Source: an uncultured Acidimicrobiaceae bacterium
GTDB taxonomy: Bacteria; Actinomycetota; Acidimicrobiia; Acidimicrobiales; RAAP-2
Direction: 5' to 3'
DNA: 41,414 nucleotides
Assembly: GCA_903894295.1 (NCBI GenBank)
Contig: CAITPI010000063.1
Location: forward strand, 1-41,414
Below, piece by piece: positions 88-8,821 of this stretch. The notes below the pieces were generated by a model that saw nothing but the letters and a program-made list of their open reading frames with translations, ran no database searches and was not told the origin of the DNA. Within the stretch, counting starts at the first letter, position 1, and every line of letters starts with the position of its first letter. The position numbers were made by a program, and so were the translations under genes.

Positions 88-1188
88 ATGCCTGTCGCCC
101 GCAGAAGGACGTCGTCTTCCTGGCTCGGTCTCGTCGAGGAGGCGTTCCGCAGCCGTCAACGTCGGTTCCAGCCAACGCGATCGGTCGTGGGAGCGACGAC
201 CACCATCATCCCCCTCGCCGTTGGCCTCGCCGCCGGTCGACCCACCTTGGGTCTCTTTGCCAGTTTGGGCTCGCTCAACGTGGCGCTCGAACACGGATCG
301 GGAACCCGGCGGGACCGGCTGAGATGGGGCTGCTTCGTCCTCGTCGGCTCGAGCCTGTCGGTCCTTTTCGCCACGTGGGTCGAACCGTGGGCCTGGGCCA
401 GCGTGGTCGTCGCCTTCGCCTGGATCGCGTTGTGGACCATGTTCCGCAGCACCGGGTCCCTCGGAGCCGGCATCGCCTTCATCGTCAGTGCCGTCTTTGT
501 GATCGCCAACGGACAGCCCGGCGGCGCCTCGGAAGGGGTTGTCCGCACCATCGTCTTCGCCGCCGGAGGCCTGATGGCGCTGGTTGTCTTCGCGGCGCCA
601 CGGGGTTGGGGCTTTGAGAGGACCGACGATCCGGCCGCGTCCGGCCAACCCATCGTGCGCCAGGTGTGGAACGGCCTGGCGACGGCATGGACCACCCACC
701 GCCAGCTCGCCATCTACGCGCTCGCCTTGGGCGCCGTGGTCGCCACTTCGACCGGCCTCTACCGTCAGTTTTCCCATCTCGCCGAGGGCTACTGGATCCC
801 CCTTGCCGCCCTGGCGGTACTCCAACCCGACGAGCACGGCACCCGGCTGAAGGCCATCCAGCGGTCGTTCGGCACACTGGTCGGGATCGCCCTGGCCGCC
901 GGCCTCCTCCTGCTCAGCCACAACCAGGCTGTCCTCGTGGCCGGTGTCTTCGTGGCCGCCCTGGCGCTGTTCGGCGCCAAGGACATCGGGTACCACTGGT
1001 TCGTCGCATTCCTGACGCCCACCGTGATCATGATGTTGGCCGCCTCGGGAGCCAACGGGACGGCCCTGTTGGGCCCCCGGTTGTTCAACAACTTCTGTGG
1101 CATGGTTCTCGCCCTCCTTGCCGCCCTGCTGTTCGGGTTCGTGCGGAAGCTCGTCAGGCGCCACCGGACGGATCGGGCCAGACCCTGA
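88..1188 (+). CDS. FUSC-family membrane transporter (aromatic acid exporter-like)
   Basis: A 366-aa integral membrane protein. It has two blocks of hydrophobic helices, roughly residues 30-170 and 205-350, separated by a polar segment. This two-fold arrangement, and phrases such as AEGYWIPLAALAVLQPDEHGTRLKAIQRS-like residues around 235-260, match the FUSC/YccS/ArAE superfamily of putative exporters of aromatic acids or other organic anions; the substrate cannot be read from sequence. It is shorter than the 649-aa FUSC protein encoded at 6872-8821. The start ATG is 6 nt after a CATACT hexamer (76-81) and has no Shine-Dalgarno sequence, which suggests a leaderless mRNA. The frame is open to the window edge upstream, so a longer protein is not excluded. 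Confidence 0.8.
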   Translation: MPVARRRTSSSWLGLVEEAFRSRQRRFQPTRSVVGATTTIIPLAVGLAAGRPTLGLFASLGSLNVALEHGSGTRRDRLRWGCFVLVGSSLSVLFATWVEPWAWASVVVAFAWIALWTMFRSTGSLGAGIAFIVSAVFVIANGQPGGASEGVVRTIVFAAGGLMALVVFAAPRGWGFERTDDPAASGQPIVRQVWNGLATAWTTHRQLAIYALALGAVVATSTGLYRQFSHLAEGYWIPLAALAVLQPDEHGTRLKAIQRSFGTLVGIALAAGLLLLSHNQAVLVAGVFVAALALFGAKDIGYHWFVAFLTPTVIMMLAASGANGTALLGPRLFNNFCGMVLALLAALLFGFVRKLVRRHRTDRARP

Positions 1189-1206: not shown

Positions 1207-1235
1207 TGGACAATCGAACATACGTTCGATACTGT
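1207..1235 (+). promoter_or_regulatory. SOS promoter with LexA box filling the -35/-10 spacer
   Basis: TGGACA (1207-1212) and TACTGT (1230-1235) are separated by 17 bp. The spacer holds TCGAACATACGTTCGA at 1214-1229, an exact match to the actinobacterial LexA box TCGAAC-N4-GTTCGA. LexA bound there would occlude both promoter elements. Only 7 nt separate the -10 element from the ATG at 1243, so the transcript should be leaderless. What is seen is the motif and spacing; LexA control is inferred from the known consensus. Confidence 0.85.
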
Positions 1236-1242
1236 CCCCTTC

Positions 1243-1491
1243 ATGCTCTACGAAGTCGACGTCACCCTCGCCAAACCCCTCGACGACGAGAACCGACGGT
1301 TCCTCGAGGCGGTCCAACGGTCGGCCAACCGGGTGGTGCGGTTCAGTGGCAGCGAACGGTCCATCCGGTTGACCATCAGCGTGGCCGGCCTGAGTCGGGA
1401 CGACGCCGTTCGGGCGGCCGCCCGGGAGGTGGCGTCCATCTTTCCGGCCAGCGACGACGAGAAGTACTCCGAACCGCGTCTCAGCGCCTGA
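1243..1491 (+). CDS. Small protein of unknown function, predicted SOS-induced
   Basis: An 82-aa soluble, mixed-charge protein beginning MLYEVDVTLAKPLDDENRRF. I do not recognise a family. The sequence suggests alternating beta strands and helices (a beta strand at residues 1-9, a helix about 14-28, a strand about 38-47, a helix about 51-65), as in a small ferredoxin-like alpha/beta fold. There are no cysteines and no membrane segment. The open frame extends 17 codons upstream to an ATG at 1192, but that stretch contains the promoter and LexA box, so the ATG at 1243 is chosen. It stands alone as a transcription unit. The upstream LexA box predicts induction by DNA damage; no function is claimed. 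Confidence 0.8.
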   Translation: MLYEVDVTLAKPLDDENRRFLEAVQRSANRVVRFSGSERSIRLTISVAGLSRDDAVRAAAREVASIFPASDDEKYSEPRLSA

Positions 1492-6871: not shown

Positions 6872-8821
6872 TCAGTGATAGGAGGCCATCAGACGGTGGG
6901 CCCGGTCCAGTGGATCCAGCAGCGATGTTCCCGGCTCCCCCGGTTCCGTTCCCTCCCGGGACGTGCCCAGATTCTCCAGGCGGAACGCCACGTCACGGAG
7001 ACCGGTCTGGATCTCCCGAAGTTCGCCGACCCCGGGACGACCGCCAGGGAGGATCGACACTTCCACCAACTGGGCCGCCAGTTCATTGAAACCCTGCAGG
7101 ATCTGACGGGCATCCTCGAAGTGCAGAACGTGGTGCCCGGGTTCGTGGGCGGCGATCGCCAACACCGTCGTCGCCCGGGCCCGGGCATCCGTCGCCACCC
7201 GCGACTCCTTGGTTGACAGGAGGTTGACCCCCGGCTGGTTGATCAACGGTTCGACGACGTCAGCCAGGGCCAACGCCACATCCGCCAGAGACGCACGAAC
7301 GTTGTACTTCTGACGGAAGGGCCACAGGAGGGAAGCCAGCAACACGATGATCCCGCCGATCAACGTGGCGAGCATGCGGGCCGGTGCGGTGGAGTCGACC
7401 GGATCACCCTGCAGCCAGAAGGCCACCAGAACGAACATCGTGAATCCGGCGATGCACCACGCATAGTTGGGCACCAGAAAGAAGACCGTCACCACCGCGG
7501 CAAACCCGAGGAGCACCAGAGACCAGGCGGCATCCGGACGGAACACGACGAAGACCAAAAGCGTGAGCAGCGCACCGAGGCAGGTGCCGGCCAGACGGGA
7601 TGCCACCTTCAGGTAGGTGTCTCCCGTCCCGGGTTTGGCGATCCACGCCACGGTCACCGCGATCCAGTAGTCGTGGGAGAAGTGCACCACGAGCGTGCTC
7701 ATGATGGCCACAAAGATGGCGATGGTCAGGCGGACTCCGTGCCGGAAGGAAGGATCCGACCAACGGAGATGGTCACGCCAGGAAAACCCGGTTGACCGGA
7801 GCGGGCCCCACACCCTCACGCCGAATCGTCGGCCAAGGGGCCACGGTCCTCCCACCAGCGCCACGGCGCCATCGATCGCCGAGACAACGGCCAGGACCAC
7901 CGTCGAATCCGACGGCCCGGCCAGAGACAGGTAGTGGTCCACTGCATTGGTGAGTCGGGTCTGCGCCCGGCCAAGACCCCGGTGCCGGATTGGCCAGACG
8001 AGGGTCCGGGCCACCCCCCGGGAGAGGTTGCTGACGGCGGAAACCACCTCGACGAGGGCGTCACGCTCTTCTCCGGTGCCGACCCGTGCCAACACTTCGG
8101 CCAACGCCGCCACCGAGGTGCGGAACGACTGGCTGGAAACCATCAGGTCAGAGAACCACTGCCGGGAGGCTCCTTCGTGGAGGTCGGTGTCGAGTCCGAC
8201 GCCCGCCATCCGCAACCGTTCGGCGTGGACGGTGGACCACATGGCTTCGGGACCACATCGCAAGGCAACGGCCTCGCCCCGGAAGAAGACCGCCAACTGG
8301 GCCCGGCTGCCCGAAGCCCGGTGCCAGATCCAGGGCAGGACGATCGCCGCCACCATCACCACCTCACCGGCCACCAGGGCGACCACCAACCCGCCGCCGG
8401 AGTCAACGGGCAAAGGTGCCCCGGAGTAGACCACCACGACCACCAGGGACAGGACGCCGGCCATGGCCCCGCGCGGCCCGAGCGCACAGAGAAGTCCCGA
8501 GCCGAACGCCCACAAGGTGACCACGGCCACGTGAAGCACCGGGTCGTTGGCCACCAGGACCCCGAGCGCCACCGCCAGTGAGGTCAGTGCGACCGCTCCG
8601 GACAGGCCCCGGATCCGGTGGCGGTAGGCGCCGGACGGATCGGAGAGCCCGATGAACAGGGATCCGACGGCGGCCGAGGTACCCCAGGCCGGGTGCCCGA
8701 GCCATCGTCCGCCGATCACGGCCACCACGACGAGCACCGCCACCCGGATGGCCGGGGTGATGGAAAGCGACGCCCGGTCGGTGGCCGCAACGTCGGTGAG
8801 AATGGCCCTCGGAAAACGCAC
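6872..8821 (-). CDS. FUSC-family transporter, full length
   Basis: A 649-aa membrane protein with two repeats of a helical bundle (about residues 20-165 and 345-490), a soluble middle region (165-340) and a C-terminal soluble helical region after about 500. This matches the YccS/AaeB-type FUSC layout, predicted to export aromatic carboxylates or similar anions. GTG at 8821 is 6 nt behind TAGCCT (8828-8833, minus strand), with no Shine-Dalgarno, so it is probably leaderless. It is the second FUSC protein in the window; the two are not adjacent and differ in length, so they are not a recent tandem duplication. Confidence 0.85.
   Translation of the reverse strand: MRFPRAILTDVAATDRASLSITPAIRVAVLVVVAVIGGRWLGHPAWGTSAAVGSLFIGLSDPSGAYRHRIRGLSGAVALTSLAVALGVLVANDPVLHVAVVTLWAFGSGLLCALGPRGAMAGVLSLVVVVVYSGAPLPVDSGGGLVVALVAGEVVMVAAIVLPWIWHRASGSRAQLAVFFRGEAVALRCGPEAMWSTVHAERLRMAGVGLDTDLHEGASRQWFSDLMVSSQSFRTSVAALAEVLARVGTGEERDALVEVVSAVSNLSRGVARTLVWPIRHRGLGRAQTRLTNAVDHYLSLAGPSDSTVVLAVVSAIDGAVALVGGPWPLGRRFGVRVWGPLRSTGFSWRDHLRWSDPSFRHGVRLTIAIFVAIMSTLVVHFSHDYWIAVTVAWIAKPGTGDTYLKVASRLAGTCLGALLTLLVFVVFRPDAAWSLVLLGFAAVVTVFFLVPNYAWCIAGFTMFVLVAFWLQGDPVDSTAPARMLATLIGGIIVLLASLLWPFRQKYNVRASLADVALALADVVEPLINQPGVNLLSTKESRVATDARARATTVLAIAAHEPGHHVLHFEDARQILQGFNELAAQLVEVSILPGGRPGVGELREIQTGLRDVAFRLENLGTSREGTEPGEPGTSLLDPLDRAHRLMASYH

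What the first reader, a model, noticed from the sequence alone, without database searches (positions are those of the whole stretch)
1207..1491. Unknown 82-aa protein under a textbook LexA-controlled, leaderless promoter
A perfect TCGAAC-N4-GTTCGA box (1214-1229) occupies the 17-bp spacer between TGGACA and TACTGT, and the ATG follows after 7 nt. The gene is monocistronic and resembles no DNA-repair family I know. A single gene with so exact an SOS operator is a good candidate for an undescribed DNA-damage response protein.
Basis: partly seen in the sequence, partly recalled or inferred. Interest (0 to 1): 0.78.

Follow-up and report, generated by a model that had tools for sequence, protein, structure and literature searches.

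The report
Small SOS-controlled gene, protein unknown
An actinobacterium carries a small gene of unknown function that is very probably switched on by DNA damage; in the genomes searched only three close relatives have it, at other places in their genomes but with the same damage-response switch in front.

Summary
A perfect LexA operator (1214-1229) nearly fills the 17-bp spacer between TGGACA (1207-1212) and TACTGT (1230-1235); an 82-codon gene starts 7 nt later. It scores 26.97 against 11.08 for the next-best window site on a matrix built without it. In the host genome the same core precedes lexA, recA, ruvC, imuA' and an exonuclease/GIY-YIG gene. In one genome the operator also lies upstream of a divergent UvrD/PcrA-type helicase. 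DNA similarity around the gene stops at the promoter, whereas ruvC, lexA and exonuclease loci match into their flanks (recA in 1 of 3), so this looks like an accessory SOS gene that relocates with its promoter. No family matches. AlphaFold2 gives a ferredoxin-like topology (pLDDT 86-87), nearest ACT/Lrp-RAM, not significantly. DinI fails on sequence and charge. SOS control is strongly inferred; the molecular role is a guess.

The parts
1207..1212 (+). -35 element TGGACA (weakly conserved)
   Evidence: the homologues have TGGAAA, TTGCAC and TTGCCA at the same spacing
1214..1229 (.). LexA operator TCGAACATACGTTCGA, 16 of the 17 spacer bases
   Evidence: half-sites CGAAC and GTTCG the same in 4 of 4 loci
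1230..1235 (+). -10 element TACTGT (TANNNT type); the last three bases of the operator, CGA, give CGNTANNNT
   Evidence: TANNNT in 4 of 4 loci; promoter type from PMC3898074 (passages)
1243..1491 (+). 82-codon gene, predicted ferredoxin-like protein; stop included
   Evidence: homologues; fold; pS above pN in all six pairs

Best explanation
It is an accessory SOS gene. LexA bound at 1214-1229 blocks RNA polymerase by occupying the spacer; after DNA damage RecA-stimulated LexA cleavage frees the promoter, and a probably leaderless mRNA makes an 82-aa ferredoxin-like protein. Promoter, operator and gene form a self-contained unit found at four different places in one genus of Acidimicrobiia. My best guess for the protein is a small modulator that binds a repair or recombination protein (RecA filament or a UvrD-type helicase) through the invariant R26-S-A-N-R30 segment between helix 1 and strand 2. 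Shown by computation: operator, its conservation, the host SOS regulon, the limits of the shared DNA. Inferred: repression and induction, leaderless start, relocation. Guess: the protein's target. My odds: SOS control 0.93; regulatory or modulatory protein rather than enzyme or toxin 0.5; acts on RecA or UvrD in particular 0.2.
For: Perfect operator within the promoter. The host LexA is matched (TIGR00498) with two perfect-core boxes upstream of its own gene; recA, ruvC, imuA' and an RNase_T/GIY-YIG gene in the same genome also carry boxes. 3 of 3 homologues, found by protein without regard to the box, keep it with the same geometry; 10 of 10 half-site columns are invariant against 8 of 52 other upstream columns, hypergeometric p about 4e-7 (the script located the boxes by their core and ignores relatedness, so p is only indicative; the MAFFT alignment, made without the box, shows the same ten invariant columns). 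In L015 (G010) the operator also lies upstream of a divergent UvrD/PcrA-type helicase, and that helicase's relative in G008 has its own LexA box upstream. At the gene, DNA matches were found in 4 of 6 locus pairs, all limited to promoter plus gene, window-L015 spanning window 1207-1445; ruvC (3 of 3 pairs), lexA (1 of 1) and exonuclease (2 of 2) loci match into their flanks. The same order of strands and helices is predicted from two members.
Against: No expression or binding data exist here. Only four members are known, so the alignment is thin, two of the five models of the second structure job had pLDDT only 65-67, and no fold match reached E <= 0.001. The close helicase relative was found in only 2 of 4 carriers; the best in G000 and G011 are 37 and 36% identical, probably other helicases, so the link may be chance. 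The gene was found in 4 of 14 held genomes of the genus, so it seems dispensable; several assemblies are incomplete and some absences may be false. Loss of synteny is not unique to it: recA matches its upstream flank in 1 of 3 pairs only, and imuA' loci match downstream but not upstream. The members' charge differs (pI 5.4 to 9.5).
Confidence: 0.6

Rival explanations
1. A passenger or selfish unit: a small gene that spreads between genomic sites and is merely timed by SOS, as many mobile genes are, with a role in its own spread or in conflict with other mobile elements.
For: Four different neighbourhoods, DNA homology limited to promoter plus gene, presence in 4 of 14 genus genomes. In L017 a 16-nt direct repeat (88%) stands on either side of the unit (7933-7948 and 8417-8432), which may be chance.
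Against: No match of the window protein in phage or plasmid records, no relative in IMG/VR, none in PADLOC, one PHROG at E 0.021 for one member. No histidine in the window protein, so no HUH motif (motif recalled). Of 14 neighbouring ORFs scanned, 6 had a Pfam match and none was a transposase or integrase. No inverted repeats flank the unit in the four loci, beyond scattered short ones.
Confidence: 0.2
2. A DinI analogue: a small SOS protein that binds RecA filaments, evolved separately in this lineage.
For: Length 82 against 81 aa, LexA-type control, and a beta-alpha-beta-beta-alpha order (the DinI topology and its SOS control are recalled, not seen in a call; that DinI binds RecA filaments is stated in PMC3164682, passages).
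Against: BLASTP with E. coli DinI gives 14.2 bits over 7 residues; no DinI family among the Pfam hits listed for 4 members at E <= 1; the acidity of DinI (pI 4.7) is not shared; DinI is not among the 50 fold matches shown for either model (over 1,100 weaker ones were not shown).
Confidence: 0.12
3. An SOS cell-division checkpoint protein or growth inhibitor.
For: Such small, lineage-specific genes are common in SOS regulons (recalled: SulA, YneA, SidA; a cell-division inhibitor is part of the core Gram-positive regulon in PMC7739468, passages).
Against: Hydrophilic, mean hydropathy -0.37 to -0.55, so no sign of the membrane segment of the Gram-positive inhibitors (recalled); no family match.
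Confidence: 0.13
4. The box is a chance palindrome in a TCGA-rich genome and the ORF is spurious.
For: 9 of the 16 core matches in the genome lie inside long ORFs, and 52 loose matches in the window exceed all shuffles.
Against: Those nine score 11.5-18.6, this one 26.97; protein and box are conserved together in 3 of 3 homologues; third codon positions differ most in all six pairs.
Confidence: 0.02

Closest known systems
Actinobacterial/Firmicute LexA (SOS) regulon
   Same: CGAACNNNNGTTCG operator in the core promoter, with lexA, recA, ruvC, imuA' and an exonuclease gene under the same motif in this genome
   Different: the regulated protein matches no family in the libraries searched
DinI (E. 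coli)
   Same: 81 aa against 82 aa, SOS-type control, similar order of strands and helices (DinI topology recalled)
   Different: no sequence similarity, less acidic, different phylum
ACT domains (SpoT) and Lrp/AsnC RAM domains
   Same: ferredoxin-like beta-alpha-beta-beta-alpha-beta order; best Foldseek TM-scores about 0.6
   Different: stand-alone 82-aa protein, no E-value at or below 0.001, no Pfam match
IS200/IS605 Y1 transposases
   Different: no HUH motif, some 45-70 residues shorter, rmsd 5.6-9.4 A, not significant

Membership tests
LexA (SOS) regulon | operator of the clade's LexA type in the promoter | tested here: met
LexA (SOS) regulon | a LexA in the genome whose own gene carries the same motif | tested here: met
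LexA (SOS) regulon | operator conserved at homologues | tested here: met
   10-base core in 3 of 3 homologues
LexA (SOS) regulon | induction by DNA damage and LexA binding | not testable with these tools
   no expression or binding data
DinI family | sequence match to DinI or its Pfam family | tested here: not met
DinI family | strongly acidic protein | tested here: not met
   pI 5.4, 5.5, 6.4 and 9.5 against 4.7
DinI family | binds RecA filaments | not testable with these tools
   needs biochemistry
ACT / Lrp-RAM domains | ferredoxin-like fold of this type | tested here: inconclusive
   topology fits; Foldseek E 0.027 and above for these domains
ACT / Lrp-RAM domains | profile match | tested here: not met
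   no such Pfam hit in 4 members at E <= 1
IS200/IS605 transposases | HUH motif and catalytic tyrosine (recalled) | tested here: not met
   no histidine in the window protein

The most novel reading that the evidence does not exclude
A new family of SOS effector that has arisen within one genus of Acidimicrobiia, moves around genomes as a minimal unit of LexA operator, leaderless promoter and gene, and modulates RecA filaments or a co-regulated UvrD-type helicase: a separately evolved counterpart of DinI in Actinomycetota.
Probability: 0.15. Interest if true: 0.65.

Novelty: new member of a known kind. Interest (0 to 1): 0.45.

Why it matters
SOS regulons differ largely in small, lineage-specific genes whose functions are mostly unknown (general knowledge). 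This one comes with strong regulatory evidence, a fairly confident small fold and clear limits of homology, so it is easy to test. An operator-promoter-gene unit found at different places also suggests one way in which a regulon gains a gene with its control already attached.

Tried and rejected
Wider families: P0001 against phages and plasmids (tblastn, E limit 0.1, no match); IMG/VR (22 stretches, none related); genome contigs with P0001 alone found nothing, with the alignment three loci, whose contig lengths equal those of the genome-search hits. Profile searches of 397 order, 395 class and 396 phylum genomes (drawn samples, which overlap) gave no convincing member outside the genus; the class search listed 19 weak partial matches (E 0.0016-0.045) and the family search 2 (E 0.008-0.009), judged chance and not followed. 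PDB sequence profile: best E 0.097. Viral fold library: none at E <= 0.001. Pfam hits were all at E 0.048 or above (NapD in two members, KH_SLS1_2 and others); NCBIfam one at 0.056 (window protein only). DinI membership rejected. Dependence on the helicase weakened. The upstream FUSC_2 neighbour has a relative in 1 of 13 genus genomes, with no LexA-like site (up to 2 mismatches) in the fetched stretch. Transposon-like ends: one search looked only at inverted repeats up to 60 nt apart; one search looked without that limit in all four loci and found none that frame the unit, and one direct-repeat pair in L017. Papers: eight searches (two returned nothing) showed no account of this gene in their listings; of four papers I saw passages only; most papers of subscription journals are not in the library.

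Full report
Observation. The sequence at 1207-1491 is as described. The operator is a perfect TCGAAC-N4-GTTCGA and the only listed site in the window with at most one mismatch. In the whole genome (2,684,045 bases, 137 contigs) the 10-base core occurs at 16 places, against 2 for the reversed control pattern; across the 14 held genomes of the genus it occurs 8 to 21 times against 0 to 7. I looked at all 16. Seven lie in promoter positions: two upstream of lexA, one each at recA, ruvC, an imuA' gene, an RNase_T/GIY-YIG gene, and the gene in question. The other nine lie inside long ORFs, judged by ORF length only. Identities come (RecA, RuvC, LexA, RNase_T/GIY-YIG, ImuA' NF058630). Behind imuA' lies a DnaE-type polymerase; the ORF between them had no Pfam match, so ImuB is not confirmed. 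A matrix from 21 boxes of SOS genes of five genomes of the genus, without this gene's boxes, scores the window site 26.97, the training boxes 19.5-29.2, the nine coding matches 11.5-18.6 and the next-best window site 11.08. Genes of the other four genomes were recognised mostly by reading their translations, by DNA similarity, (helicase) and (AlkB-like).

Promoter. The spacer is 17 bp and the operator fills all but one base. The -10 is TANNNT, preceded by CGA from the operator, the CGNTANNNT form described as common in Mycobacterium tuberculosis (PMC3898074, passages). The -35 is weakly conserved. The start codon lies 7, 7, 6 and 6 nt after the -10 in the four loci, which suggests leaderless mRNAs. 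The exonuclease gene of the same genome has the same layout.

Homologues. A search of 61 genomes with the protein found the own gene and three others; with the alignment, 4 strong matches in 172 genomes of the family, all within the 14 held genomes of the genus. They correspond to MAGs named Acidimicrobiales bacterium Chersky_362 and Acidimicrobiaceae bacterium bog_575 and bog_763. Identity to the window protein is 56, 49 and 45%, with 31 invariant residues, among them R26-S-A-N-R30. Synonymous differences exceed nonsynonymous ones in all six pairs over 75 codons. The 10-base core is present in 3 of 3, with 2, 1 and 1 changes in the outermost bases; all ten half-site columns are invariant while 8 of 52 other upstream columns are (boxes located by their core; same columns in the MAFFT alignment).

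A relocating unit. BLASTN between the four loci (first 12 kb of the window; 10.6-13.2 kb of the others) gives, at the gene, matches in 4 of 6 pairs: window-L015 (1207-1445), window-L016 (1200-1344), L015-L016 and L016-L017, each beginning at or just before the promoter or inside the box and ending within or at the gene's end. Window-L017 gives none, and L015-L017 gives three matches elsewhere but none at the gene. At protein level (ORFs of 90 aa or more, E <= 1e-6; 9 kb of the window) no gene next to the unit is shared; L015 and L017 share an ORF some 2-4 kb away on different sides, and one window-L015 hit is the gene's own opposite strand. Controls, in shorter stretches: ruvC matches into both flanks in 3 of 3 pairs, lexA in 1 of 1, the exonuclease gene into its upstream flank in 2 of 2; recA in 1 of 3 (in the other two the contig ends inside recA and the upstream stretch does not match); imuA' matches towards the operon's downstream part in 4 of 4 but not upstream. 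So the gene moves, or its surroundings are rebuilt, with its promoter attached, more than for most but not all core SOS genes. No repeats framing the unit were found except a 16-nt, 88% direct repeat around the L017 copy.

Helicase. In L015 the gene and a UvrD/PcrA-type helicase are divergent, with the operator between them. A GTG of the helicase frame lies 6 nt after a TACGAT, as in other leaderless-looking genes here (inference). A 71-72% identical helicase in G008, found in two pieces, has its own LexA box upstream. G000 and G011 have only 37 and 36% matches. Co-regulation is plausible; dependence is not shown.

Fold. Two AlphaFold2 models from the four-member alignment (window protein; L016 protein) have mean pLDDT 86.1 and 87.3 and the same order E-H-E-E-H-E; of the second job two of five models were at 65-67. 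Foldseek gives ferredoxin-like domains, none at E <= 0.001: IS200/IS605 transposases and Lrp/AsnC RAM lead for the first, the SpoT ACT domain and PII-like proteins for the second (50 rows shown each). This supports the general fold, not a function.

Function. The window protein matches no Pfam or NCBIfam family and the four members none in Pfam, PADLOC or PHROGs beyond weak hits (one PHROG at E 0.021). I favour a small regulatory binder of repair proteins because of size, fold, the conserved polar/basic RSANR segment and, in one genome, the operator shared with a helicase. This is a guess at about even odds against enzyme, toxin or passenger roles; E. coli DinI is an analogy only and fails sequence and charge tests.

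Novelty. SOS control of small unknown genes is a known kind. I found no account of the protein family in the listings of eight paper searches (see Tried and rejected). Hence a new member of a known kind, with moderate interest.

Noticed in passing
L037:2029-2044 (G000 ruvC); also L059, L065, L071: ruvC appears to start inside its LexA box (ATG within CGAACGCATGTTCG) in four genomes of the genus; imuA' in several genomes may have the same layout.
   Followed up: partly
G011:C34 about 25717 (L070, L087): Another LexA box with a perfect core, TACCTT and an ATG 6 nt on, before a long ORF without a Pfam match: a second candidate unknown SOS gene.
   Followed up: partly
L069 (G011:C7 about 16976): LexA box upstream of an AlkB-like 2OG-Fe(II) oxygenase gene (PF13532).
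   Followed up: partly
L017:7453-7543: SAM riboswitch (RF00162) about 460 bases upstream of the homologue in bog_763; no evident connection.
   Followed up: no
L017:7933-7948 and 8417-8432: 16-nt direct repeat, 88% identical, on either side of the homologue; may be chance.
   Followed up: no
window 88-1188 and 1640-2767: Upstream neighbour is an FUSC_2 membrane protein; the downstream ORF of 375 aa has no Pfam match and reads like a sulfotransferase (impression only).
   Followed up: no
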